Part shown: one piece after another, positions 503-21,936 of the stretch | How positions within the stretch are numbered: the stretch's first letter is position 1 | How the letters are laid out: each line of letters starts with the position of its first letter | Source: a virus | Direction: 5' to 3' (one strand) | DNA length: 22,380 nucleotides | Virus record (IMG/VR): IMGVR_UViG_3300043411_001601 | Coordinates: 1 to 22,380 of that record | The notes under the pieces: model-generated | What the model saw: only the letters and a program-made list of their open reading frames with translations | Told to the model about the DNA's origin: nothing | The model's database searches: none | Made by a program: the position numbers and the translations under genes

Positions 503-1176
503 GGCCGCCACCCCACGGACTCCAGGGCGGCCACGACCTCCGTCACCACCCCGCCGAGATCCTCCCCCGCGTCGAGGGTGGCCCGCGCGCTGGCGATGAT
601 GCCCGCGGCCAGCCGCAGCGCGTCCGCGTCGAGGCCGTAGCCCTGGAGCGACCGCATGGCGCCCTCGGCCGCAGCCGCCGTCGACTCGCCCCCGAGGCGC
701 ACCCGCACGGCCATCGACGCCGCGTAGCAGGGTGCCTCCCCCGCGGCCCGCGCCTCGGCGCCCACGAGGTAGGCGATGCACCACGGGAGCCCACCCGCGC
801 GGATCTGCCCGGCGTGGCCGAGCTCGTGCCGCACGGTCTCGAGGAGGCGCAGCGGGTCAGACCACACCGCGGGCGACAGCGAGATGACCGTGCGGTCGGC
901 GCCCACGGCTGCGACGGCCGCGGCGAGGATGGGCCCCACCACCGGCACGGCCGCCAGGGCCGCGAGCGCGGGGCCGGCCCCGGGCAGCGTGACGGAGACG
1001 TACTCCGCGACGTGGTCGCGCGACCATGCCGAGCGCCCGCCGTGGCGGGACGCGAGGGCGACGCCCGCGACGATCACGTCTCGCAGGGCATGGTCGGGCG
1101 GCAGGAGCGTCACGCCCGCGGCGTCGCACATGCGCTGCGCCGCAGCGCGCGCCTGCTCCGGCGTGGGGGCCTTCAC
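499..1176 (-). CDS. HELGH metallopeptidase-like protein
   Basis: This 225-residue protein starts at a GTG inside a GTGA overlap with the upstream gene and itself ends in a GTGA overlap with the next. Residues 115-124 (VRHELGHAGQ) contain the zincin motif HExxH, with H117, E118 and H121. Glutamates at 141 and 147 lie 20-26 residues further on, where gluzincins place their third zinc ligand. A hydrophobic Ala/Val/Pro/Gly stretch at about 66-92 could be a membrane helix or a buried core helix. The C-terminal third is Ala-rich and helical. I cannot assign it to a named peptidase family. Context among membrane and secreted proteins suggests a role at the host envelope, perhaps in lysis. Confidence 0.75.
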   Translation of the reverse strand: MKAPTPEQARAAAQRMCDAAGVTLLPPDHALRDVIVAGVALASRHGGRSAWSRDHVAEYVSVTLPGAGPALAALAAVPVVGPILAAAVAAVGADRTVISLSPAVWSDPLRLLETVRHELGHAGQIRAGGLPWCIAYLVGAEARAAGEAPCYAASMAVRVRLGGESTAAAAEGAMRSLQGYGLDADALRLAAGIIASARATLDAGEDLGGVVTEVVAALESVGWRP

Positions 1177-1742
1177 GGCGTCACCACCTGACTCGACGCG
1201 CAGTGCGCGATGCCGGCGGCGGACACCTCGCAGACGTCGGCGCAGCGCCGCCGGGTGCCGTCATCCTGCGGCGGCATCGCAGGCCACCACCGCCCGGCAC
1301 GCGAGCACACTTCGGGGGCGCCGTCGTGGCAGCGGTGGGAGAGGGCGACGCAGGCCACGCGGGGGCTCTGCGTGTCGAGCACGGCCTCTCGCGCCCGCGG
1401 GCAGCCCTGGAGCGCGAGGCTCACGAAGACGAGCCCCAGGAGCCCCACGAAGGCCGCGAGGGCCAGCGCAGGGGCCGACGCCCGGCCCGACTGCCCGGAG
1501 CGCCCAGACGGGGCCGCAGGGCGCCGCCGCAGGATCGCCGCGAGGACGTCGGGCAGGAGCGCGGCGACGCGGGCCGCAGCCGACTCGATCACGGGGACGG
1601 CGGCGGGCCAGCGGCGGGCGACGGCCGGGCGCAGTGCGGCCCACACGAGGCGCGCGAGCACGGTCACGGCGCCGAGGATGACGGGCACGGTGAGGCCGTG
1701 CGAGTCGGCCCATACGAGGGCGCGGGAGAGGGTGTCGAGCAT
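1173..1742 (-). CDS. Membrane protein with C-terminal cysteine-rich module
   Basis: This 189-residue protein starts at ATG, three bases after the previous stop, with CGGAG upstream as a ribosome site. It has a hydrophobic segment at about 17-38, a basic Ala/Arg-rich region, and a second hydrophobic segment at about 90-113 ending in LQGC, which looks like a lipobox but is internal. The C-terminus has six cysteines (131, 138, 146, 167, 171, 181) spaced C-x6-C-x7-C-x3-GRW...C-x3-C-x9-C. That is nearly the spacing in the small protein at 251-502. The likely topology is membrane anchor plus exported cysteine-rich domain. Position after a holin candidate suggests a lysis or envelope role. A holin or spanin identity is possible but unproven. 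Confidence 0.7.
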   Translation of the reverse strand: MLDTLSRALVWADSHGLTVPVILGAVTVLARLVWAALRPAVARRWPAAVPVIESAAARVAALLPDVLAAILRRRPAAPSGRSGQSGRASAPALALAAFVGLLGLVFVSLALQGCPRAREAVLDTQSPRVACVALSHRCHDGAPEVCSRAGRWWPAMPPQDDGTRRRCADVCEVSAAGIAHCASSQVVTP

Positions 1743-1745
1743 AGG

Positions 1746-1994
1746 TCAGGGCTCCGGGTCGGGGGGAGGCGGGGTAGATCGGGCGATGCGGCGCGCGGCG
1801 CGCTCGCCGTGGGCACGCACGATGGGGCGTGCCCACTCCAGCGCGAGCCCGACGACGAGCGACGCCAGGGCGCCGAGGACGATCGCGGGGCCGCGGTGGA
1901 GGAGTGTGTCTGCGACGCCGGTCACGGTGCCGCCCACGCCCATCAGGGTGAGCAGGCGCCCGAGGGCGCCGCTGCTGTCGTCGGGCGGGGTCAC
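1746..1994 (-). CDS. Small membrane protein, holin candidate
   Basis: This 82-residue protein starts at a GTG in a GTGA overlap with the fibre gene. It has one clear hydrophobic helix at about 34-54 (AIVLGALASLVVGLALEWA) and a weaker hydrophobic stretch at about 12-30. A basic segment follows (RAHGERAARRIAR) and then a short Pro/Asp tail. The size, membrane helix, charged C-terminus and place directly after the tail fibre are typical of holins. Holin families share little sequence, so the call rests on architecture and position only. Confidence 0.6.
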   Translation of the reverse strand: MTPPDDSSGALGRLLTLMGVGGTVTGVADTLLHRGPAIVLGALASLVVGLALEWARPIVRAHGERAARRIARSTPPPPDPEP

Positions 1995-2776
1995 GCGGGC
2001 ACTCCCAGGTCGACCGACGACACGTCAGCCCACGACACGACGACGGGCGTGCTGCTCGCCGTCCCGAAATGCAGGGCCCGCGCGCGGACGTGCCCGAGCG
2101 CGACCGTGGGGCTGGCCGCCGCCCACGAGATGCTGTGCGAGCACCGCCACACGGTCGGCGGGGCAGTGCCTACCCCCGTGCCGTGGTAGACCGACACCAG
2201 CCCATCACGGCGGCGGACACGTACCCACCCCGTACCGCCACGAGGGAGCGCCGCCGAAACGGTCCCGCGGCTCGACCCCGAGCCCGACAAGAAGGTCAAC
2301 AACTCGACGCCCCCGCTTGCGTCGACCCACACGGACACGAGCGACACGCCCGTCTCGCCGGATGCGGCCGAGGCCACGTCGAGCACGGCACGCGGGCTGC
2401 CCCCCGCGCCCCCGGAGAGTTCGGCGAGACGCGCGCGCACCTCCCACTCCTCCGGCGCGGCGAGGGGGTACGAGATCGTCGGAGTGTTGTCGCCGAGGCA
2501 CTCGGTCGCCGAGGGGATGCCCAGGTCGGCAGTCTCGGCGCCCGTGTCGATGGCCGCGCTGCCAGTACCGGCGACGACCGTCCATCCCGTCGCGGACGAC
2601 AGGTCGAAGGCGACGCGACTCAGCACGCCGGTGGGCAGCGCGTGCACATGGCCCGCGTCGCTCGCCTCGCCCGTGCTGCCCGCCGCCGCAGTGCCGAGGG
2701 GCTGCGGGGTCGCGGTGGAGAGGGTGACGGAGCTTCCGCCGCCCGAACCGCCTGCGCCCCTGGGAATGATTGCCAT
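1991..2776 (-). CDS. Tail fibre or receptor-binding protein
   Basis: This 261-residue protein starts at ATG 42 bases after the previous stop, with CAGG seven bases upstream. The N-terminus is Gly/Ser-rich, followed at about residues 28-48 by a segment of the type PLGTAAAG...ASDAGHVHAL. The 'G-x-A-S-D-A-x-H-V-H' pattern is typical of trimeric phage tail fibres and collar spikes. The remainder is beta-rich with repeated short hydrophobic strands and few charged residues. It ends VVSWADVSSVDLG, which resembles the last strand of a lectin-like jelly roll. It most likely binds the host surface at the tail tip. The receptor cannot be told from sequence. Confidence 0.75.
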   Translation of the reverse strand: MAIIPRGAGGSGGGSSVTLSTATPQPLGTAAAGSTGEASDAGHVHALPTGVLSRVAFDLSSATGWTVVAGTGSAAIDTGAETADLGIPSATECLGDNTPTISYPLAAPEEWEVRARLAELSGGAGGSPRAVLDVASAASGETGVSLVSVWVDASGGVELLTFLSGSGSSRGTVSAALPRGGTGWVRVRRRDGLVSVYHGTGVGTAPPTVWRCSHSISWAAASPTVALGHVRARALHFGTASSTPVVVSWADVSSVDLGVPA

Positions 2777-3946: not shown

Positions 3947-4629
3947 GACCTCACCTCGAATGCCGAGACGCTGTGGATGTAGTCACCCGACCCGCTGATG
4001 TCGTTGGACAACCACCCGACCCACAGCCACAGGGGCGCGACCACGGTGGATGCGTCGGTGTCGCCGTCGCGCGAGCGCCACGGGGTGGACGGCCGCACCG
4101 CGCGTAGGGTCAGGTCAAGCTCTGCGACGAGGTAGTCCGCGGCAGCGGCGGCGGGGAAGGTTTGGAAGGCTTCGGCAATGCGCTCGGTGCGGAGTGGGGT
4201 GTCGTAAATCCCCGTCACTGCCGCCATGACCGTGAGCGACGTGCCGCCCGTGCCGACCTTGCGAAGCTCGACGAGAGCCTTGAGGGAGCGCATGCCGAAG
4301 CCCCGGCCGTCGAGGGCGATCGCGTGCGCGTGGATCGGGCCGAAGCAGACGCACTGCACCCCCTGCACCCACGGGATGCGCGCGAAGATGTCGGCCCCGT
4401 CTTGCTCGAAAACGTCGTAGGTGTCCGCCCACTGGTCAAAGGTCGTGGTGTCGTAGCCGATCACCCCCGGCCCCGCGTGCTGCCCGATCAAGCGGGCGTT
4501 TTGCGCGCTGAGTTCCGAGGCGTTGCTGTGCATGATGTGGGCGCTCCCGGCGTCGAGGGGCGCGCCGTCGGGGGTGACGCCCGTCGTCGGGTGCCGCAGG
4601 TAGGTGCCGAGCCTTTGGCCGATGGTCAT
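3943..4629 (-). CDS. Tail-tip / minor tail protein
   Basis: This 228-residue protein starts at ATG in an ATGA overlap with the tail hub gene and ends in a TTGA overlap with the next tail gene. It has no signal peptide or membrane helix. The N-terminal 60 residues are polar and probably extended or helical. The rest alternates short hydrophobic strands with turns. It ends in a beta-rich segment with WLWVGWL followed by strands, suggestive of a jelly-roll fold. Tight coupling to the hub on one side and a beta-rich tail-tip protein on the other points to a structural tail-tip role. No family recognised. Confidence 0.7.
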   Translation of the reverse strand: MTIGQRLGTYLRHPTTGVTPDGAPLDAGSAHIMHSNASELSAQNARLIGQHAGPGVIGYDTTTFDQWADTYDVFEQDGADIFARIPWVQGVQCVCFGPIHAHAIALDGRGFGMRSLKALVELRKVGTGGTSLTVMAAVTGIYDTPLRTERIAEAFQTFPAAAAADYLVAELDLTLRAVRPSTPWRSRDGDTDASTVVAPLWLWVGWLSNDISGSGDYIHSVSAFEVRS

Positions 4630-7202
4630 GGGGCGATCCTCCTAGCGGGCTCCGCGGTGCTGTCGATGACCAGCGTAGTCTCGTCAGCGACGTGCATGAA
4701 AAGGCCCTGCGCCGCGGTCAGGCCCGCGGTCGCGTAGGAGCTGCCGCGAATGTCGACGGGGCCCGCGCCGATCGCGGTCTGCATCCCCGCCGAGAGCGCG
4801 ACCGTGAAGGCGATGCGCCATTCGGTGCCCGTCCACGTCACGGTGTCGATGATGCGGTCTTCGCTCGTGAGGGTCGTGCTGTCGCGCGTGAGCAGCTGCA
4901 CCCGGTCGCCCGCCGCGAACAGCGATTGCACACCCGTGCCGGTGCCGCCGAGGCCGTCGGTTCCGCCCGCGTAGTCGTACGAGCCCACGGGCGTCGCGTC
5001 GATGTCCACCACCGTCGAGGACACCACCGAGAGCACCCGCGCGCATGGCGCGTACCCGTACGAGACGCGCGGGAATAGCAGGAGTTCCAGCGTGACGGTG
5101 GCCGCGAGGAAGTCGACCTCGCGCCCGTACACCACCCCGCGGCGCGCGGTGATGCCGCGGTCGCCTGCGCCGTCGGGCGTGATCCAGTCCGTGACCGCCA
5201 CGAGGTGGCCTAGCTCGACGCCGACGTGCTCCAGCGACACGACGACGCGCACGGTGGGCAGCGGGTCAGCCCACAGGGAGAGCCGCGCGAGAGCCTGCCG
5301 CGCGAGGACGTAGGGGTCGTCCGACACAGGGCCTTGCGCGTCGACACCCGCGAGGGTGACGGCGATAGGATGCCCCGGCCCGTAGCGCGCGACGCTGCCT
5401 TGATCCACCGTCACGATCTGCAAGCCCGGCCCCTGGAGTTCCAGGCGATTCGCGAGGCCGTCGTCCCACACAGACCAGACCGGCGTGCCGATGATGTCCG
5501 TCGCCGTCAGGGTGGCGTCTGGGGTCGCGGACACCGACGGCCACGCCCACGGGTGGAGGGCCGCGCGGCCCGACCGCATCACGGGCGTCACGCCCGACAG
5601 TAGGCAGCACTCCGACAGGAGCGAGTCCACCGTGCGCCGCCCGTCGAAGGTCCACGACCGCGCCACCGGGTAGCCTCGCGTCGCGGCGACCACGGCGGGG
5701 AGCGTCGACCAGTCCCAGTCATCCTCGGGCTCGCAGTCGTCGGCCAGCGGCAGCGCGGCGCGCCGCAGGCCCCACGCCCAGTGCTGCGTCAGGGCCATCG
5801 TGGCCACCTGCGCCGGGGGCGGGTCGGTGAGGCGGTACTGCCGTACGAGCGTCGTGCTGCCCTGCGTCGGCGCCGACCACGCGCGCGGGGTCAAGCGCAT
5901 CTCAGCCACGTTGAGGGCTGGCGACCACACCCCGGCGCTCGCCTCACCGTGCACCAGGGCGTCTGCCCACATCTCCCGCGAGTGCTCGACGCGCAGGATG
6001 TCCCGCGTCGAGGTCGCGTAGTCGGTGCCCGTGTCGGTGGTCGACCACCCCCACACGGTGGGCAGACCGTCCACCGACGTGACCGCGAGGCGCAGCGGGG
6101 AGCCGTCGAAGAAGACATAGGCCACGCTCGGGATGGGGCCGAAGTCGAGTGACAGGAACTCCCGCGTCGACCCGCGGTTGCGCGACGGCACGAGCTCGGT
6201 GCTTGTCGGAGTGCCAAGCCATGTGACCCCGGCCCAAAAAACCGAGGGGTTGCTGTCGATGTCGACGCGCGCGTTCGCCCCGACGCGCGAGATGAACGCG
6301 GCCACGCCGGTTCCGCGGTCGGTGGTGCCCGACAGCGCGCGCGCCTCCACGCCGCCGGTGAGTTCATCCCACGTCCGCACTGTGCCGGTGCTCGTCGCCG
6401 TGGCCGGGAGGTTGGTGCTCACCTGGATCTGCACACCGAGGACCGGCGACCCGATGCCCGTCGTCTGCTGCCCGTACCCCACGAGGCGCACCGTCGGGTA
6501 GGTGGGCGCGATCGGGGCCGCACCGAGCACCTGGAGGTAGGGGTCGCACGGGAGGTCGAAGGCGCGGCCGTCGTCAACCAGCTTCGGCGCGCGGACGCAG
6601 AAGCCCTGCCACACCGGGGTCGCAACGCCCGCGTCATCGACGCGCCACAGCACGACCTTGCGCCGCTGCACCCACGGGACGGACGTAAAGACTTCGGGCT
6701 GTACTACATCGTCGACAAGGTGCGCGCGGGCCTTCGTGCCGAGCGCGCCGCGCCCGACGGTGACGGTGTTGGACACCACCGACGTGACGCTCATGGCCTC
6801 GCGGCCGACCCACACCCACGCCGAGCCGGTGACGACGCCGCCAGCGCCGACGGTGATCGTGGTCGCGATGGCTGTGGCGGTCGACGCGAGGGGCGTGCTC
6901 GTGACCTCGGTGCTGTCGAGGGTCGCGAGCCGGGTGAGGATGCTGTAGCCCGACGCGAGGCCCGACGACGCCACAGGGTCGCGCAGGCGGAAGGTGATCG
7001 CGTCCACCTCCAGCTCCCCCGCGAGGGGTCGCGCGCGCTCCGCCACCCGGAGTCCCTCGTACCCGAGGACGCCGTGCGCCACGACGACGCCCGACTCCGC
7101 GCCCCACCACAGGGGGGAGGTCGACGTGGGAAGGGCGGTCACGCCGTCCGTGGTGAACACGTATGGCACGCCCGCGATGGTCAATGCAAAGCCGCGGATC
7201 AC
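4626..7202 (-). CDS. Large tail hub / central tail protein
   Basis: This 858-residue protein starts at GTG 17 bases after the lipoprotein stop; AGGTGA lies a little far upstream. At residues 105-161 there is a small beta domain (ATTITVGAG ... VTVGRGALGTKARAH) of a type often seen in tail proteins. At about 185-230, strands like VVLWRVDD and VWQGFCV are followed by a domain ending at the DPYLQVL stretch. Residues 520-555 (VDSLLSECCLLSG then a 'RSGRAALHPW' strand) resemble the linker helix and strand of tail hub proteins. It is the longest tail protein after the tape measure, so a hub or tail-associated role is likely. It lacks a visible peptidase or lysozyme motif. Confidence 0.75.
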   Translation of the reverse strand: MIRGFALTIAGVPYVFTTDGVTALPTSTSPLWWGAESGVVVAHGVLGYEGLRVAERARPLAGELEVDAITFRLRDPVASSGLASGYSILTRLATLDSTEVTSTPLASTATAIATTITVGAGGVVTGSAWVWVGREAMSVTSVVSNTVTVGRGALGTKARAHLVDDVVQPEVFTSVPWVQRRKVVLWRVDDAGVATPVWQGFCVRAPKLVDDGRAFDLPCDPYLQVLGAAPIAPTYPTVRLVGYGQQTTGIGSPVLGVQIQVSTNLPATATSTGTVRTWDELTGGVEARALSGTTDRGTGVAAFISRVGANARVDIDSNPSVFWAGVTWLGTPTSTELVPSRNRGSTREFLSLDFGPIPSVAYVFFDGSPLRLAVTSVDGLPTVWGWSTTDTGTDYATSTRDILRVEHSREMWADALVHGEASAGVWSPALNVAEMRLTPRAWSAPTQGSTTLVRQYRLTDPPPAQVATMALTQHWAWGLRRAALPLADDCEPEDDWDWSTLPAVVAATRGYPVARSWTFDGRRTVDSLLSECCLLSGVTPVMRSGRAALHPWAWPSVSATPDATLTATDIIGTPVWSVWDDGLANRLELQGPGLQIVTVDQGSVARYGPGHPIAVTLAGVDAQGPVSDDPYVLARQALARLSLWADPLPTVRVVVSLEHVGVELGHLVAVTDWITPDGAGDRGITARRGVVYGREVDFLAATVTLELLLFPRVSYGYAPCARVLSVVSSTVVDIDATPVGSYDYAGGTDGLGGTGTGVQSLFAAGDRVQLLTRDSTTLTSEDRIIDTVTWTGTEWRIAFTVALSAGMQTAIGAGPVDIRGSSYATAGLTAAQGLFMHVADETTLVIDSTAEPARRIAP

Positions 7203-7219
7203 CCCGCGACGGTATCACC

Positions 7220-7729
7220 TCACAGCGCGCGGGGCCAACACCGGCCAAGGTGCGTCGCGCGGCCGAGAAGCCCTTGGATGCTGCCGCCCGAGTAGACCCG
7301 CAGGCCGGAGCACGCGGGCGACCACGCCGACACGTCGCAGAGCGCGGGAGGGTAGGTGCACCCCGCGGCGGCGAGGCGGTCCCACGCGGGCCGCAGCGAT
7401 GCGGGCATCCCGGCGACGGCGTACCGCAGGCACTCAGCCCACGGCACGAGCCCGGTGTCGCCGTCGCGCAGGTCGAGTAGGGTGCACCACGCGCCCTCGC
7501 GGGGCTGCGCCGCGGAGCACCACGGGGCGAGGTCGCGCCGCGCGTGGAGGCGGCACAGCGCCTCCGTCCACAGCCCCGCGGCGTCTGGCTCCACAGCGGC
7601 CCGCACGTCGCCCGCGGGGGCGTCGGTGGGCGCCGATGCGTCCGCGGCATCCTCGCCCCCGGACGGGCCATCCGCGGTGGCAGAGCAGGCCATCGTGACG
7701 GAGAGGATGGCGGCGAGCATGTAGCGCAT
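7220..7729 (-). CDS. Lipoprotein-like cysteine-rich protein inserted in the tail operon
   Basis: This 169-residue protein starts at ATG (a second in-frame ATG lies three codons on). Residues 4-14 are hydrophobic and end in TMAC, a lipobox-like site with Cys15. An Ala/Asp/Pro/Gly linker follows (about 16-50, with DAADASAPTDAPAG), a style very common in myxobacterial surface lipoproteins. The rest holds eight cysteines (59, 71, 82, 100, 124, 131, 140, 164) and several tryptophans, suggesting an exported disulphide-rich domain. The lipobox is imperfect (Thr at -3). No ribosome site is obvious. It sits between a distal tail candidate and the hub. It could be a superinfection-exclusion or other moron-type protein, or a virion part; neither is shown. 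Confidence 0.65.
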   Translation of the reverse strand: MRYMLAAILSVTMACSATADGPSGGEDAADASAPTDAPAGDVRAAVEPDAAGLWTEALCRLHARRDLAPWCSAAQPREGAWCTLLDLRDGDTGLVPWAECLRYAVAGMPASLRPAWDRLAAAGCTYPPALCDVSAWSPACSGLRVYSGGSIQGLLGRATHLGRCWPRAL

Positions 7730-7761
7730 GGCCCACGGTAGCGCACCGCGGGCCCCCGAGG

Positions 7762-8625
7762 TTACAGGGTGCCGGTCGCGGCGAGGGAGAGCACGAGCGG
7801 GCCGACGCTGCGCCGGGGGTCGTAGCCCGCGACGGAGAGCGTGGTCGCCGCGCTGTGCGACTCGGGGGTGAGGTACACCACGTCGAAGGTGGTCACGCTG
7901 GTATCGAGCACGCCCTGGAGGTCATCGGTCCACCCGCACCGGGCGCCCACGGCGGTCGCGAGGGTCTGCGGCACCGACCACGGCGGCACCTGCGCGGGGG
8001 CGCTCGCGCCGGGGTCGAGCCGGTACGCGGGCTCGGGTATGGCGGGCGTCGAGGTGCTGCCGATGGTGGCGCGCGTCGCGTAGTCGCGAGGCAGGAGCGA
8101 GAGGGTCACGCGGCGCAGCATGCGGGTACGGCGGTCCTGCCACCCGTACACGGTGCCATCCGGCATCTCTTGCGCCGCGGTGCGCCCCTGCACCACCTGC
8201 CACCCCTCATCCTCGGCGGCGGCGGCGAACACGCAGTGCGTCGGCTGGTAGGTAGCCGTCCACGTCCCGCCCGCGGCGAGCGGCGCCGGGGGTGAGGCGG
8301 TGGAGTACCCGAGCAGCGCGCGGAGGGTGGCGGTGATGGTGAGGTCGCCCGTGCCCGTGCCGGTGTAGGTGATGGTCACGCGACCGTCGGCGCCCATCTC
8401 GCACGACCACAGGGCGCCGAGTAGGGTGTCGACGGTGTACAGCAGCTCCGCTGGGTCGGCCGCGGTGCCCGATCCGGTGATCGGCGCGAGCCGGGTGCGG
8501 TACCACTGCGCGGTGATCGCCACGACCACCCCGGCGCCGTCCGCGTCGCTCTTCGTGATCGTCTGCGAAGCGGGCAGCTGGTAGGGCTGCGCGAGCATGT
8601 AGCAAAGGGTTTCGGCCACGGTCAC
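7762..8625 (-). CDS. Minor tail protein, distal tail candidate
   Basis: This 287-residue protein starts at a GTG in a GTGA overlap with the end of the tape measure gene and stops at TAA. It is beta-rich, with Thr/Ala/Gly-rich strands (VTITYTGTGTGDLTITATL around residue 100), and has no membrane segment. In siphophages, the first gene after the tape measure usually encodes the distal tail protein that caps the tube and holds the baseplate, so that role is the best guess. The sequence itself shows no family signature I can name. Confidence 0.65.
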   Translation of the reverse strand: MTVAETLCYMLAQPYQLPASQTITKSDADGAGVVVAITAQWYRTRLAPITGSGTAADPAELLYTVDTLLGALWSCEMGADGRVTITYTGTGTGDLTITATLRALLGYSTASPPAPLAAGGTWTATYQPTHCVFAAAAEDEGWQVVQGRTAAQEMPDGTVYGWQDRRTRMLRRVTLSLLPRDYATRATIGSTSTPAIPEPAYRLDPGASAPAQVPPWSVPQTLATAVGARCGWTDDLQGVLDTSVTTFDVVYLTPESHSAATTLSVAGYDPRRSVGPLVLSLAATGTL

Positions 8626-10949
8626 ATCCCCCGTCCTGCGCGGAGCACGCGCGGTGATACGCCCCGAGTCGCGGCGCGGTCGAGGGCGCGCACGATGCTC
8701 TCTTCGACGCCCTCGTTGAGCAGCGCGCCCGACACGTTGATGTTGAGCACCAGCGGCCCGCTCGACTCCTGCGACGCGCCGCCCGCGCGGGCCTGCGCCG
8801 GCGCCGGGGTGCGCGCGCCACCTCCACCGGCCTGCGCGGCGGCCGAGTCAACCCGCGGGATGGCAGCGGCTCCGACGCCCGCGGCCACGCCCGTTGCGGC
8901 CCACAAGCCCGCGGCCTTGAGGTACGCGAGGCCCTGCGGCACCGAGCCGCCCGCGAAGGCCGCGACACCGAGGGCCGTGTTTTTCAGGGCCTCGACGGCG
9001 CTCTGTTTCGCGAGGCTCACGAGCACGGCGCGCAGCTGCCGTTGGAGGGCTTGACCGAATGCCTCTTCGCCCTCAAGCGCGAGCGCCGCGGACTCCACGA
9101 AGGCGTTGCCCACCGCGCTCAAGCCCTGCACCATCTCGTCGCGGTAGGCCCGCATCGGGGCGAGGCGCTCGCGCTCGATCGCAGCCCGCTCCCGGTCGGC
9201 GGTGTTGGCCGCGGTCACGAGGCCCACGCGCTGCGAGAGCAAGCCGTTGATCTCGCTCTCCGCGGCGCCTTGCTCGCGGGCCTGGGCGATGCGCCCGTCT
9301 ACCTCCGTCACCAGCTCTCGCATGGCGTCGGCTTGCGACCGCAGCATCTCGGCGCGCCGCATCTCGCCGGCGCCCGTGAGGTCGTCGAAGAATCCCGCTT
9401 GCCCGGGGAGGTCGGCCGCGGCCTCGGAGAAAGCCCGTTGCGTGTCGCCGATGCGACCGGTGAGCCTACCCGCCGCAGCCTCGCGGGCCGTGCGCTCGCG
9501 CGTCTGCTCTGCCTCGCGGGCGGCCTGCGCTTGCTCAAACATCGTCGACATCGTGGGCGCCGACACACCCGTGCCGCGGAGCCGCTGCGCCTCCCGATGC
9601 GCGGCCTCCATCGCGGCCGTCGTCAGGTCGGTGGCGGTGCGGGCGACTGATGTTGCAGCGGCGCGTGGCCGGGGGGGCGGGCGCGGAGGGCGGGCGTTGC
9701 TCGCAACGTCTCCGGTCATCTCGCGGATGACCGCCCCGAGGTCGGAGATGATCGCCTCCCGCTCGCGCGCGTCGATGCTAGGCGCCGCGGCTGTCGCGGT
9801 TTCGCCCGCGCCGAACAGATCACCGAGACCCGCGCCGTCGATGGCGCCGAAGCGTCGCCCTTGGAGGCGCTCGCGCTCCGCTGCCGCGATGGCGCCGCGC
9901 ACGCCCGCGGTGGAGCGCGTGCCCGCAAATCGCGTTCTGAGCTGCCCCGCTGCGCGCTCGAGCTGCGCGGTCGTCAGGCGGTTGAGGGTGTCGGGTGGTG
10001 GAAGGGCGCGCGCGAACTGCTCTGCGGTCCCCCCGCGCTCGATGAACGCCGCGCGCGCCTCGCGCTGTGCAGCCTGGAAGGTGGAGATCGCAGCCCCGCG
10101 CTGCGCTACGTCGGCCTCGGTTCGCGAGGCGTTACGAGACGCGGTGATCGCGTCGTTGATGTCCTCGGTGAGCTGGCGCAGCCGCGTCGCGAGACCCGAC
10201 ACGATGCCTTGGAGCCCGAGGCCGTCCGCGGCCATCATCGCGAAGGCCGACGCCGCTTGCGTGGTCGCCGTGCCGAGGCGCTCCATGTCCTCGGACAGGG
10301 TGCGCGCCGCGGGCGACGTGCCCTCCTGCTGCTGTGCCAGCTGCCGCGTGGCCTGGGCGAAGGCCTCGGTGCGTTCGAGCCCGCTTTGCAGGGAGATGCC
10401 GTACTTCTGGAGTTCGTCGGCGCTCGCGCCCACAAGGGCATCCGCAAGCTGCTCGGTGGCCTGCGTCGCGTCGGTGCCGGTCGCGCGGGCGTAGTCGCGG
10501 GCCGCGCGCGTGATGACCCCGAGCTGCGTCGTGGACACCTGCAAGCCAGAGCGCACGAGGCGCTGTTGCGTGGCGAACGCCTGTTGCGCAGTCACGGTGT
10601 CGCTCGTCGCGCGGCGCACTTCGTCGTACGCGCTGCCGAGCGCGTTGACGGCGCGGAGATTGTCCTCCCCTCGCCCGGCCGCAGTCCCGAGCGCGACGCC
10701 CGCCGCCACAGCCGCCGCGGTGAACGCGGTGACGGCGCCGCCCGCGGTCACGAAGGCCTCACCGAGCCCGCGCGCCGAGATGCCGCCGCGCCGCCCCACG
10801 CCGTCGAGGGCATCGTCTGCCGCGCCCGCCTTGTCGGCCAGCTTGTCGACGCTCTTCTCAAGCTTGTCGACCTCGCCGGTCAGGGCCCGCACCGAGCGGA
10901 CAGCCTCGGGCCCTCCGATCTCTACGGGCACCACGATCTTCTCAGCCAT
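8622..10949 (-). CDS. Tape measure protein
   Basis: This 775-residue protein sets tail length and probably enters the host envelope with the DNA. It starts at ATG inside an 8-base overlap with the -1 frame chaperone ORF. Residues 18-50 are a charged helix likely to form a coiled coil (ALTGEVDKLEKSVDKLADK). A hydrophobic Ala/Gly segment lies at about 64-92. A long Ala/Gln/Arg-rich helical region follows, with a proline/arginine linker near 415-430 (PPRPPPRPR). A second hydrophobic region is near 670-715. This helical, Ala-rich layout with two hydrophobic segments, right after the chaperone pair, is characteristic. By the usual 1.5 angstroms per residue rule, the tail would be a little over 110 nm (inference). 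Confidence 0.9.
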   Translation of the reverse strand: MAEKIVVPVEIGGPEAVRSVRALTGEVDKLEKSVDKLADKAGAADDALDGVGRRGGISARGLGEAFVTAGGAVTAFTAAAVAAGVALGTAAGRGEDNLRAVNALGSAYDEVRRATSDTVTAQQAFATQQRLVRSGLQVSTTQLGVITRAARDYARATGTDATQATEQLADALVGASADELQKYGISLQSGLERTEAFAQATRQLAQQQEGTSPAARTLSEDMERLGTATTQAASAFAMMAADGLGLQGIVSGLATRLRQLTEDINDAITASRNASRTEADVAQRGAAISTFQAAQREARAAFIERGGTAEQFARALPPPDTLNRLTTAQLERAAGQLRTRFAGTRSTAGVRGAIAAAERERLQGRRFGAIDGAGLGDLFGAGETATAAAPSIDAREREAIISDLGAVIREMTGDVASNARPPRPPPRPRAAATSVARTATDLTTAAMEAAHREAQRLRGTGVSAPTMSTMFEQAQAAREAEQTRERTAREAAAGRLTGRIGDTQRAFSEAAADLPGQAGFFDDLTGAGEMRRAEMLRSQADAMRELVTEVDGRIAQAREQGAAESEINGLLSQRVGLVTAANTADRERAAIERERLAPMRAYRDEMVQGLSAVGNAFVESAALALEGEEAFGQALQRQLRAVLVSLAKQSAVEALKNTALGVAAFAGGSVPQGLAYLKAAGLWAATGVAAGVGAAAIPRVDSAAAQAGGGGARTPAPAQARAGGASQESSGPLVLNINVSGALLNEGVEESIVRALDRAATRGVSPRVLRAGRGM

Positions 10950-11409
10950 CGCGCTCTCGCTTCTTGCGCGCGTCTCGCAGCTCCGCGGCTTCGCGGGCGG
11001 AAACGCTGGTGTCGATCAGGTCGATGGCCTCGGCCAACGCTGGCGTGGGCCACGGGACGCGCTGTGCGAGCGACCCGTTGCGCCACCATCTTAGCGCGAC
11101 CAGGGCCTCGTGTGCGTCGGCGCGACGGACACACGCGCCGGGGCATCCCGTGACCTCGCCGGGGTCGCAGCCGATCAGCCGCGCGACTGCCGCCGTCGCA
11201 GCCTCCGTCGCGGCCTCGGGGGCGCCGCTGTGGCCCGCGTGAGGACAGGCCCACACGCGTTGGAGGCGGGCGGCGTCCGCGGCGAGCACGGCGCGCGCAC
11301 GGGGGTCAGGCTCCGCGTCGGCGTCGAGGGCGAGGTCACATCCGCAGGGGTGGTCGCCGAGCGCACGGGTCAGGAGCTCGCTGCCGTGCCACCCCACAAG
11401 GCGAAAGGG
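10942..11409 (-). CDS. Tail assembly chaperone, -1 frameshift extension (T-like)
   Basis: This reading frame continues the upstream chaperone if ribosomes slip back one base on GGGCCCTTTC (11412-11403). The full fusion, from the GTG at 11900 to the stop at 10942, would be about 319 residues, with 153 added after the slip. A weak alternative is independent initiation at an in-frame GTG (11397-11395), giving 151 residues, but no good ribosome site precedes it. The extension holds cysteine/histidine clusters (HPCGCD, WACPHAGH, CDPGEVTGCPGAC), which could bind metal, and a basic C-terminus (ARKKRERDG). In lambda, the analogous G-T fusion recruits tail tube subunits to the tape measure. It ends in an 8-base overlap with the tape measure start. 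Confidence 0.75.
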   Translation of the reverse strand, partial: PFRLVGWHGSELLTRALGDHPCGCDLALDADAEPDPRARAVLAADAARLQRVWACPHAGHSGAPEAATEAATAAVARLIGCDPGEVTGCPGACVRRADAHEALVALRWWRNGSLAQRVPWPTPALAEAIDLIDTSVSAREAAELRDARKKRERDG

Positions 11410-11412
11410 CCC
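11347..11412 (-). promoter_or_regulatory. Programmed -1 ribosomal frameshift signal
   Basis: On the minus strand the zero frame reads AAG GGC CCT TTC GCC. This contains two overlapping X-XXY-YYZ heptamers, G-GGC-CCT and C-CCT-TTC, ending at 11403. After a 7-base spacer, GGGGTGG (11395-11389) can pair exactly with CCACCCC (11353-11347). Inside it CACGG (11388-11384) can pair with CCGTG (11368-11364). The zero-frame stop TGA (11372-11370) lies within the structure. Frame arithmetic gives exactly -1 between the two ORFs. A slip site, short spacer, strong stem and correct gene position are the hallmarks of tail chaperone frameshifting. Confidence 0.8.
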
Positions 11413-11900
11413 TTGGCACCCCGCGGGAGGCGAGAGAGCGACAGGGCCACCTCGCCCATCTCCTGCACCGCGTCGGTGCCGAAGCGGTCCGCGAAGGCTT
11501 GCACCCACTCCTCGGGAGCGAGCGTGACGCCGTAGTCGGCCGCGCGCGCCACGTAGAGGCCCTGCGAGCCGGGCGGGAGCACCTCCATGGGCTCGCGCCC
11601 GGCGACGTGGTGCACGGCCGCGCGGAAGGCCACCACGCGCCGCTGCGCCACCGTCGCCGCCGAGTCCACCACGCCCACGAGGAAGGCCGCGGGGAGGCGC
11701 CGCACCGTGATCCACTCGGGCTCCACGCCCTCGACGTAGCGAAGGAGGCTCTCGTCGCGCTCGGAGATGTACCGCGCGAGGTCGGGGAGGCGCGCACCCT
11801 CGGGGCCCGTGGTCATCGCCTCGAAGTCGATGCTCGGGTCGGGGCACGCGGGAGAGCAGCGGAGGACACGGATGGTGGTCGACAGCGGGGAGATGGTCAC
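11370..11900 (-). CDS. Tail assembly chaperone (G-like)
   Basis: This 176-residue protein starts at GTG 14 bases after the tail tube stop, with GGAG eight bases upstream. Earlier in-frame starts would lie inside the tube gene. It is soluble, with no membrane helix. It has a short Cys-containing N-terminus (VLRCSPACPD), a strand/helix region around 25-75, and a helical C-terminus ending FALWGGTAASS. It sits between the tail tube and tape measure genes, where tailed phages encode the chaperone that coats the tape measure. It also has an overlapping -1 frame ORF with a slip site. Assignment rests on this arrangement more than on sequence similarity. Confidence 0.8.
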   Translation of the reverse strand: MTISPLSTTIRVLRCSPACPDPSIDFEAMTTGPEGARLPDLARYISERDESLLRYVEGVEPEWITVRRLPAAFLVGVVDSAATVAQRRVVAFRAAVHHVAGREPMEVLPPGSQGLYVARAADYGVTLAPEEWVQAFADRFGTDAVQEMGEVALSLSRLPRGAKGPFALWGGTAASS

Positions 11901-11914
11901 GCGGGAGGCTCCGG

Positions 11915-13183
11915 TCAGATGGTGGCGATGCGAAGCGGGGCCGTGGCGAGGTCGCCGGTGCCCGTGGTCGTGTTGTCGCGCAAGAGCCGCAGGGTCAGCG
12001 ACATCTTCGAGATGTTGTTGTCGCCGCGCTCGACGCGGGGCTTGCCCACCACGAAGACGCGCGGGGCGTCGATGACCACGAAGCGGCGCACCGAGGCCGA
12101 CACGTCGAGCTGCACGAAGAGCATCAGGCTGAGGTCCGTTTGCGATGCCCAGTACGAGGTGTCGTAGTCGGTGTCGACATCGCACACGAGGTCGATGGTG
12201 GCGAACGCCTCGGTCAGCCCGGCGCTGCGCATGACGCCCTTCCGCCCCTCGACGCCACAGGTCAAGGTTTCGAGGTGCTCCATGCCGCTCGTGATGTTCA
12301 GGGTGAAGCTGTCCACCTTGACGCACGTGCGGGTCGTGGTGGCCACGGGCTGCAAGTACATCTTCGCGCCGCGCGTCGACAGCGGCGAGGCCATCGGGTC
12401 GGCGGCGACCGCGGCGCCGAGGGAGAGGTTGGCCGGGCCGGTGAAGTCCGCGAAGGTCAACTCAAAGTTGGCCGTCACGAGTTCGCCGCGGGTGAAGCTG
12501 ATCGACACGTTGCCCGTGCCGCCGAGGGCGCGGTATTCGAGCGCGGTGCCGCTGCTCGGTGCGAGCGCGAGCGACATGGAGCGCGTGTTGGTCTGCGTCG
12601 CGTACCACGTGCGGGAGTTGATGACGCGCCCGCCCGCGTCGGGGGCGGCGGCGAGCGCGGGCCACACGGTGATGGTGTCGGTGGAGCGGGTGGTGACGCG
12701 GCACGGCACGAGGTCTTCGGTGCCGCCGTTGGATTGGTCCACCGCGCAGATCTGCCCCGCAGGGAGGCGCGAGCCCGTAGCCGCGCCCACGTCGAAGACG
12801 CGCCCGTTGACGTTGTACGTGCCGCTCGGGATGGTGGCGCCCGCCGCGATCGACTCGCCGCCGAGGATGCACCGCATCGGGACGGAGAGCGGGGAGGCCG
12901 CGTCGCCGCCGGGCGTGGCAGCGGTCACGAGGTACGTGGTGTCCGGCTGGATGTAGTGCTCAAAGCCGCCGCTCGCGGCCTTGTACCCGCGGACGGGCTT
13001 GGTCGGGTCGTGCGCCACGACGCGCAGCCGAAGGGCCTCGATCTCCGTCTGCTCCGCGGAGAGGGTGGCGGTGTCGACGCGCGGGTGGATGCGCTCTTCG
13101 GTGCCAGCGGTGCCGAAGGGGCTTTCCTCGGACACGTAGACCGCGCCGAGGTGTGATGCATGGATGACGGTCTGCTGTGCCAT
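11915..13183 (-). CDS. Major tail tube protein with extra domain
   Basis: This 422-residue protein starts at ATG just after the previous TAG, with AGGA eight bases upstream. It is beta-rich and forms the tail tube by inference from position before the chaperones. Its opening (VYVSEESPFGTAGT) is of a kind often found at the start of tube proteins, and its C-terminal part (CVKVDSFTLNITSGMEHLE and later strands) fits tube-fold strands. It is longer than typical tubes of about 150-250 residues. The region about 105-205 looks like an inserted small beta domain (GSRLPAGQICAVD, then RVTTRSTDTITVWPAL). It may be a surface-exposed decoration or an inserted adaptor domain. Confidence 0.8.
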   Translation of the reverse strand: MAQQTVIHASHLGAVYVSEESPFGTAGTEERIHPRVDTATLSAEQTEIEALRLRVVAHDPTKPVRGYKAASGGFEHYIQPDTTYLVTAATPGGDAASPLSVPMRCILGGESIAAGATIPSGTYNVNGRVFDVGAATGSRLPAGQICAVDQSNGGTEDLVPCRVTTRSTDTITVWPALAAAPDAGGRVINSRTWYATQTNTRSMSLALAPSSGTALEYRALGGTGNVSISFTRGELVTANFELTFADFTGPANLSLGAAVAADPMASPLSTRGAKMYLQPVATTTRTCVKVDSFTLNITSGMEHLETLTCGVEGRKGVMRSAGLTEAFATIDLVCDVDTDYDTSYWASQTDLSLMLFVQLDVSASVRRFVVIDAPRVFVVGKPRVERGDNNISKMSLTLRLLRDNTTTGTGDLATAPLRIATI

Positions 13184-21182: not shown

Positions 21183-21628
21183 GTGTCCTCGGGGGGATCG
21201 TCGGGTGCGTCGAGTCGCGCCACGGTCAGCGATGCGGGGAGGGCCAGCTCGGGGCCTTCGGTGATCGGTGCGGCGCCGTCCGCGCGGAGCTTCGCCAGCC
21301 TCGCCTCGTGCCGGGCCTTCTGCGTCTCGGCTACGCGGCGGTGGTGGCCGTCCAAGAAGGTCAGGTACCGCAGGGCCACGTCCGGGTCTTCGCGCGCACC
21401 GGCGATCACCGACGCCCGGAGATCTCGCTCGATCTCGCCCGCCGCCTCGTCCCACCGGCGCACCCACGTCGCGTAAGGCTCTGCGCCCTCGCGGCCCTTG
21501 CGCACCCACCCGGTCAGGGTAGGCCACGGCACACCCGCCGCGGACGCGCACCGGCGCAGGGGCATCCCCGTCGCCCTCGACGCGCGGATCGTCTCTCCCA
21601 CCGCGTCGGTGAGGTGCGTCGCACTCAC
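21179..21628 (-). CDS. Terminase small subunit candidate
   Basis: This 149-residue protein starts at GTG in a GTGA overlap. Longer in-frame starts would lie inside the neighbouring gene. Residues 11-45 look like a helix-turn-helix (IRASRATGMPLRRCASAAGV then TLTGWVRKG), the DNA-recognition domain expected of a small terminase. A helical middle (EAAGEIERDLRASVI, ALRYLTFL) could mediate oligomer formation. The C-terminus is acidic and Pro-rich, ending DDPPEDT. It precedes the large terminase with one gene between. A regulatory HTH protein is a less likely alternative. Confidence 0.75.
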   Translation of the reverse strand: MSATHLTDAVGETIRASRATGMPLRRCASAAGVPWPTLTGWVRKGREGAEPYATWVRRWDEAAGEIERDLRASVIAGAREDPDVALRYLTFLDGHHRRVAETQKARHEARLAKLRADGAAPITEGPELALPASLTVARLDAPDDPPEDT

Positions 21629-21828
21629 CCGACACCACCGCGCGCGCGATAGGTCTGCGGCCACACGCGGTCGATGTCCGGGAAGCTGGCCAGCACGAGG
21701 ATGCGCCCGTCGCGCCACACTCGCACGGCGTGGCCGGTGCGCAGGAGGGCCATCGCCTCGGCCCGCTCGTCGCGGGCGATGCGAGCCTGATCGTCGAGCA
21801 TGGCGGTGTAGTCGTCGCGTCTGTCCAC
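21625..21828 (-). CDS. Small hypothetical protein
   Basis: This 67-residue protein starts at GTG and ends in a GTGA overlap with the small terminase gene. An internal ATG ten codons on is another possible start. No clear ribosome site is seen for either. It has a charged N-terminal helix (LDDQARIARDERAEAMALL) and a short strand pair (AVRVWRDGRILVLASF). It is the first gene after the intergenic regulatory region, so it probably opens the structural operon. Function unknown. Confidence 0.55.
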   Translation of the reverse strand: MDRRDDYTAMLDDQARIARDERAEAMALLRTGHAVRVWRDGRILVLASFPDIDRVWPQTYRARGGVG

Positions 21829-21936
21829 AGGGGGAGGGTACGCGACGCCCGCCGTTGCCGCAACCGTCCAACAATCCCGGAGAGTTGGTGCCGCACGCGC
21901 GAGGTAGGGGTATGGGGCTCGCCGGGAAAACGGTTG
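21829..21936. promoter_or_regulatory. Intergenic region with GTTG/CAAC inverted repeats, candidate operator/promoter
   Basis: This 108-base gap is the longest without a gene. It holds GTTG-CCG-CAAC (21854-21864), CCAAC with GTTGG 11 bases later (21868-21888), and GTTGTCAAC (21933-21941), all built from the same half-sites. On the minus strand a perfect TTGACA (21940-21935) overlaps the resolvase stop. No convincing -10 box follows at 16-18 bases; CATACC is about 20 away. It precedes the packaging and structural operon and could control it. The repeats are seen; regulation is inferred. Confidence 0.4.

What the first reader, a model, noticed from the sequence alone, without database searches (positions are those of the whole stretch)
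7220..7729. Host-style lipoprotein between tail genes
A lipobox-like TMAC after a hydrophobic start, an Ala/Asp/Pro linker and eight cysteines are unlike the surrounding tail proteins, and lack a clear ribosome site. Phage-encoded lipoproteins often block superinfection. One placed between distal tail and hub genes could act on the same tail's receptor or injection step.
Basis: partly seen in the sequence, partly recalled or inferred. Interest (0 to 1): 0.6.

Follow-up and report, generated by a model that had tools for sequence, protein, structure and literature searches.

The report
Optional lipoprotein gene in phage tail operon
A phage of an unidentified, very GC-rich bacterium carries, between two conserved tail genes, an optional extra gene for a small cysteine-rich protein sent to the cell envelope and probably started from its own tiny promoter; by analogy with E. 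coli phages it most likely shields the infected cell from similar phages, but that role is untested.

Summary
The 169-aa ORF at 7729→7220 has phage-like coding statistics, an export signal ending in TMAC, an Ala/Asp/Pro linker and eight further cysteines. It has no detectable homologue in any collection or library searched. The only close relative found (IMGVR_UViG_3300034072_001539, 35 kb) keeps the tail module in the same order, mostly at 47-75% identity, but there the two flanking genes lie 35 bp apart with no gene between. So the gene is an optional extra, not a required virion part. The missing ribosome site has a candidate cause: a TACCGT -10 box 5 nt before the ATG, the signature of a leaderless promoter. 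The hub gene carries the same signature in both phages. Experimentally tested superinfection-exclusion lipoproteins (T5 Llp, mEpimmI Lpp) also sit beside receptor-binding genes or within structural clusters. Best reading: a moron-like, self-promoted, envelope-anchored exclusion factor. 'Accessory exported protein' is well supported; 'lipidated' is likely but ambiguous (TMAC fails the strict lipobox, and an SPase I site ATA|D follows); 'exclusion' rests on analogy only. New orphan family, known kind. Host not identified.

The parts
7220..7729 (-). Gene of the exported, probably lipidated Cys-rich protein (169 aa, ATG start, TGA stop)
   Evidence: ORF list; codon-position GC; codon usage and lipobox statistics; absent from the syntenic phage
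7688..7729 (-). Signal peptide, residues 1-14 (MRYMLAAILSVTMA), followed by lipobox Cys15
   Evidence: PROSITE-type rule met; hydropathy maximum at residues 4-12
7685..7687 (-). Cys15, predicted lipidation and cleavage site (TMA|C); +2 residue is Ser
   Evidence: sequence; rule
7574..7684 (-). Linker, residues 16-52, rich in Ala, Asp, Gly and Pro
   Evidence: composition
7223..7573 (-). Ectodomain, residues 53-169, with eight cysteines (possible four disulfides); no known family
   Evidence: fold prediction failed, pLDDT 40
7735..7740 (-). TACCGT, candidate -10 element 5 nt before the ATG (leaderless promoter of the lipoprotein gene)
   Evidence: signature as in PMC3160421 and PMC12340547
7209..7214 (-). 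TACCGT preceded by TGA (extended -10), 6 nt before the hub GTG; conserved as TAGCGT in the related phage
4626..7202 (-). Downstream neighbour: 858-aa tail protein, probable hub or tail-tip protein by position and a partial PHROG tail match
   Evidence: phrog_1101 tail protein E 8.7e-7; 64% identical in the related phage
7762..8625 (-). Upstream neighbour: 287-aa protein just after the tape measure gene, probable distal tail protein by position only
   Evidence: 52-53% identical in the related phage; fold prediction uninformative

Best explanation
This is an accessory (moron-type) gene placed at the promoter of the tail hub gene. RNA polymerase is thought to start at its own TACCGT -10 box, so that the mRNA begins at or next to the ATG and is translated without a leader (inferred from sequence). 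The protein is exported by the Sec route and probably cleaved and lipidated at Cys15; Ser at +2 would send it to the outer membrane if the host is Gram-negative (inferred). A flexible Ala/Asp/Pro linker then holds a small disulfide-stabilised domain away from the membrane (inferred). The most likely use is superinfection exclusion: the domain binds the receptor, or an envelope component needed for injection, used by phages with the same tail, so that the infected cell and its debris no longer take up such phages. Shown by computation: the gene, the export-type N-terminus, the cysteines, the absence from the syntenic relative, and the -10 boxes. Not shown: lipidation, location, timing and exclusion.
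For: Optional gene: the other tail genes are conserved and collinear in the related phage, whose flanking genes are 35 bp apart. Own expression signal: TANNNT 4-8 nt before a start occurs at only 3 of 35 examined starts (lipoprotein, hub, relative's hub), about 0.2 expected from background density. The narrower form TA[CG]CGT-N5-6-RTG occurs nowhere else in 57 kb on either strand. In the relative an HTH regulator gene shows the full form TTGACA-17-TAGAGT-6-ATG. Export-type N-terminus and extra cysteines. Precedents: mEpimmI exclusion lipoproteins lie within the structural gene cluster and exclude phages when expressed (PMC11893012). T5 Llp is adjacent to the receptor-binding gene pb5 and blocks FhuA from the periplasmic side; it has a disulfide, as the related Cor proteins do (PMC9586334). 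Cor is an outer-membrane exclusion lipoprotein of T1-like phages (PMC13164509).
Against: No sequence relationship to any exclusion protein or defence family. TMAC is not the strict lipobox, and an SPase I site ATA|D follows. The 155-aa mature form is much larger than Llp (77 aa by my own knowledge). No integrase was found in either record, so expression in a lysogen is not supported. Raw counts of the narrow -10 motif are not exceptional by themselves (2 seen, 0.55 expected in the window, P 0.12); the argument rests on their position at gene starts. Only two phages could be compared, so gain versus loss cannot be decided.
Confidence: 0.42

Rival explanations
1. Accessory envelope lipoprotein with a benefit other than exclusion: host-type cargo that changes the surface of the infected or lysogenic cell (adhesion, predation, resistance to antimicrobials), in the manner of the lambda Bor and Lom type of morons.
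For: Optional, apparently self-promoted and lipoprotein-like in build; accessory or moron loci confer diverse functions (PMC7067206 abstract).
Against: Position directly at the hub gene favours a tail-linked role; no cellular homologue was found; lysogeny is not demonstrated.
Confidence: 0.27
2. Exported but not lipidated: SPase I cuts after ATA (residues 17-19), and a soluble periplasmic or secreted disulfide-rich protein acts in the envelope, for example on injection or on a periplasmic host factor.
For: MRYMLAAILSVTMACSATA|D has an AXA site (sequence); the lipobox is weak (T-M at -3/-2); the eight remaining Cys make an even number.
Against: The relaxed lipobox rule is met; an Ala/Asp/Pro linker after a Cys is typical of lipoproteins (own knowledge).
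Confidence: 0.17
3. A phage-specific tail or lysis component of this lineage (for instance a virion accessory protein or an outer-membrane spanin).
For: It lies in the tail operon, on the same strand, with phage-typical codon usage.
Against: The relative has a collinear tail module without it; the lysis genes are 5 kb away and include their own conserved Cys-rich membrane protein (g1173); it is large and Cys-rich for an o-spanin.
Confidence: 0.1
4. Spurious ORF in GC-rich DNA.
For: Long open frames occur by chance here: 115 ORFs of 80 aa or more in 22 kb; no homologue was found.
Against: Frame-specific codon-position GC and codon usage, an export signal, a -10 box, and no space for it in the relative.
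Confidence: 0.04

Closest known systems
T5 Llp and Cor of T1/phi80 (superinfection-exclusion lipoproteins)
   Same: Small phage lipoprotein; Llp gene adjacent to the receptor-binding protein gene; ectodomain with a disulfide (PMC9586334)
   Different: No sequence similarity detected; here about twice as long, eight Cys instead of one disulfide, a long Ala/Asp/Pro linker, receptor unknown
mEpimmI Lpp exclusion lipoproteins (mEp021, mEp010)
   Same: Lipoprotein genes within the structural gene cluster, several sequence types, exclude phages that use the same receptor (PMC11893012)
   Different: Those phages are temperate coliphages found by the strict lipobox; here the host is unknown, the lipobox relaxed and nothing tested
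TP-J34 Ltp (Streptococcus thermophilus phage)
   Same: Moron-type lipoprotein tethered outside the membrane that stops DNA injection; interaction with the tape measure protein proposed (PMC3952083)
   Different: Ltp lies in the lysogeny module of a Gram-positive phage and no similarity was detected
Leaderless TA-led genes (TANNNT about 12 bp before the start)
   Same: TACCGT begins 11 (lipoprotein) and 12 (hub) nt before the start, no well-placed SD (PMC3160421, PMC12340547)
   Different: Described for cellular genes, above all of Actinobacteria and Deinococcus-Thermus; here phage tail-module genes

Membership tests
Bacterial lipoproteins (Lgt/LspA substrates) | Relaxed lipobox rule (PROSITE PS51257 type) | tested here: met
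   C15, R2, LAAILS-VT-M-A-C; 1.2% of codon shuffles pass
Bacterial lipoproteins (Lgt/LspA substrates) | Strict lipobox [LVI][ASTVI][GAS]C | tested here: not met
   TMAC: T at -3 and M at -2 (sequence); pattern as quoted in PMC11893012
Bacterial lipoproteins (Lgt/LspA substrates) | Acylation of the Cys | not testable with these tools
   needs palmitate labelling or globomycin; SignalP/LipoP were not available
Phage moron | Gene absent at the same place in a syntenic relative | tested here: met
   flanking genes 35 bp apart in IMGVR_UViG_3300034072_001539
Phage moron | Own promoter | tested here: inconclusive
   TACCGT 5 nt before the ATG, no -35 found; no transcript data
Phage moron | Own terminator | tested here: inconclusive
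   One terminator-like hairpin at 7210-7191 spanning the hub start; by eye its stem is not kept in the relative, so it may be chance
Phage moron | Different base composition | tested here: inconclusive
   GC 76.9% against a mean of 73.0%; 8.5% of equal windows are as high
Superinfection-exclusion lipoprotein (Llp/Cor, Ltp, mEpimmI Lpp) | Sequence homology to a member | tested here: not met
   no meaningful hit in PHROGs, Pfam, NCBIfam, PADLOC, phage records or PDB
Superinfection-exclusion lipoprotein (Llp/Cor, Ltp, mEpimmI Lpp) | Exclusion when expressed alone | not testable with these tools
   no isolate and no host
Leaderless TA-led gene | TANNNT about 12 bp before the start and no SD | tested here: met
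   definition
Leaderless TA-led gene | 5' end of the mRNA at the start codon | not testable with these tools
   needs 5'-end RNA-seq

The most novel reading that the evidence does not exclude
A new family of exclusion lipoproteins with an eight-cysteine ectodomain, in phages of an uncultured GC-rich bacterium. The gene entered by capture of, or recombination at, a leaderless hub promoter, so that a phage can gain or lose a self-promoted surface gene exactly where its receptor-recognition genes begin, linking exclusion specificity to the tail that it blocks.
Probability: 0.25. Interest if true: 0.58.

Novelty: new member of a known kind. Interest (0 to 1): 0.38.

Why it matters
If true, it would extend the tail-linked exclusion lipoproteins known from coliphages to phages of a little-studied GC-rich lineage with an unrelated protein. 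It also offers a simple way in which such genes become expressed: a bare leaderless -10 box, which needs neither a ribosome site nor a leader. That would make accessory genes in tail operons easier to recognise in metagenomic phages.

Tried and rejected
Homologue searches with the protein: viral contigs, genome contigs, phages, plasmids, own record, PDB, PHROGs, Pfam, NCBIfam, PADLOC: nothing meaningful. Relatives by hub, terminase, capsid (labelled by position) and g2819 queries: the same single related phage each time it hit, plus distant terminases (25-35%) whose loci share no other window gene. Host: not resolved; terminase hits are scattered, primase hits are scattered, relatives cannot be drawn for a virus record. 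A myxobacterial host is suggested only by my memory of similar lipoprotein style and is not claimed. Fold prediction of the ectodomain (pLDDT 40) and of g7762 (pLDDT 34) was too poor for a fold search. Sigma-70 -35/-10 scan: nothing at 6900-8000. My first motif with a fixed GGTGNN spacer was wrong, since the spacer differs (1 nt against 3 nt), and gave only chance matches. Spurious ORF, virion part and spanin were considered and put low.

Full report
What is there. The window is a 22,380-base linear virus record. On the minus strand it carries a head-and-tail operon: terminase, portal, capsid (by position), tape measure, g7762, the gene in question, an 858-aa tail protein that I call the hub, then g3943, g2819, a fibre-like gene and lysis genes. 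The reported gene, 7729 to 7220, encodes 169 aa. Its ATG is the first possible start after the preceding in-frame stop. In such GC-rich DNA long open frames are cheap, so I tested coding: GC by codon position is 0.73/0.66/0.91 like its neighbours, and a phage-trained codon index is 0.71 against 0.40-0.60 for the overlapping frames.

The protein. MRYMLAAILSVTMAC begins with Arg2 and a hydrophobic stretch, and meets the relaxed PROSITE-type lipoprotein rule; 1.2% of codon-shuffled versions do. It does not meet the strict [LVI][ASTVI][GAS]C pattern, and an SPase I site (ATA before Asp20) follows within five residues, so lipidation is likely but open. Residues 16-52 are an Ala/Asp/Gly/Pro linker. 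The remaining 117 residues hold eight cysteines; the whole protein is 5.3% Cys against 0.8% in the other gene products. No library or collection searched has a meaningful match, and a single-sequence fold prediction failed.

Variable insert. The terminase led to one related phage, IMGVR_UViG_3300034072_001539. The other predicted genes from the lysis module through terminase match it in order, mostly at 47-75% identity, down to 37% for the small g17190 and only a 28-residue piece for the fibre-like g1991. The hub is 64% identical over its length. In that phage the g7762 homologue ends at L004:4514 and the hub begins at L004:4550, with 35 bp between and no gene. The lipoprotein gene is the only gene of the tail module without any match there. 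It is therefore dispensable for this tail type. With two phages I cannot say whether it was gained here or lost there; a deletion between two similar promoter boxes would leave the same picture.

Missing ribosome site. Fourteen of 19 examined window genes have a Shine-Dalgarno-like element 1-9 nt before the start; the lipoprotein gene has none. It has TACCGT 5 nt before the ATG. The hub has TACCGT 6 nt before its GTG, preceded by TG-A (extended -10), and the relative's hub has TAGCGT at the same place, preceded by TG-G. Of 35 starts examined in the two phages, only these three have TANNNT 4-8 nt upstream, with about 0.2 expected from its density. Over both strands of both records the form TA[CG]CGT-N5-6-RTG occurs only at these three places, although its mere count is not unusual (window: 2 against 0.55 expected, P 0.12), and the narrow form was chosen after seeing the sites. 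Published work assigns TANNNT about 12 bp before a start to leaderless genes (PMC3160421), confirmed by experiment in Deinococcus (PMC12340547). As an internal comparison, an HTH-type gene of the relative starts with TTGACA-17 nt-TAGAGT-6 nt-ATG (HTH match weak). I infer that the gene has its own leaderless promoter and sits just upstream of the hub's.

Function. Exclusion lipoproteins that were tested by experiment occupy comparable places: Lpp of mEpimmI phages lie in the structural gene cluster and exclude phages that use the same receptor (PMC11893012); T5 llp is adjacent to the receptor-binding gene pb5 and its product acts on FhuA from the periplasmic face (PMC9586334); Ltp of TP-J34, though in a lysogeny module, blocks injection (PMC3952083). 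This makes exclusion the best single guess, not a finding. No integrase was found in either fragment, so I do not claim expression from a prophage. Other accessory envelope roles remain open.

Verdict. It is a new orphan protein of a known kind.

Noticed in passing
window 1173..1742 (-); relative L005:3674-4195: Lysis-module protein g1173 has two hydrophobic stretches, the second ending in a lipobox-like LQGC (LSAC in the relative), then a Cys-rich tail in which all seven cysteines are conserved. It may be a fused holin/spanin-like or lipidated protein; it is conserved, unlike the reported gene.
   Followed up: partly
relative L005:11169-11206: HTH-type gene with TTGACA-17-TAGAGT-6-ATG: a textbook leaderless promoter, as might be expected of a repressor gene.
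   Followed up: partly
window 21828..21840 (-): TACCCT 6 nt before the GTG of a small predicted gene (21625..21828): another candidate leaderless start in the early region.
   Followed up: no
window 10942..12326 (-): Two overlapping reading frames after the tail-tube-like gene and before the tape measure gene both match the relative (61% and 55%), the place where tail-assembly chaperones are often made by frameshift.
   Followed up: no
window 1991..2776 (-): The fibre-like gene shares only a 28-residue stretch with the relative, so receptor recognition probably differs between the two phages, as does possession of the lipoprotein gene.
   Followed up: no
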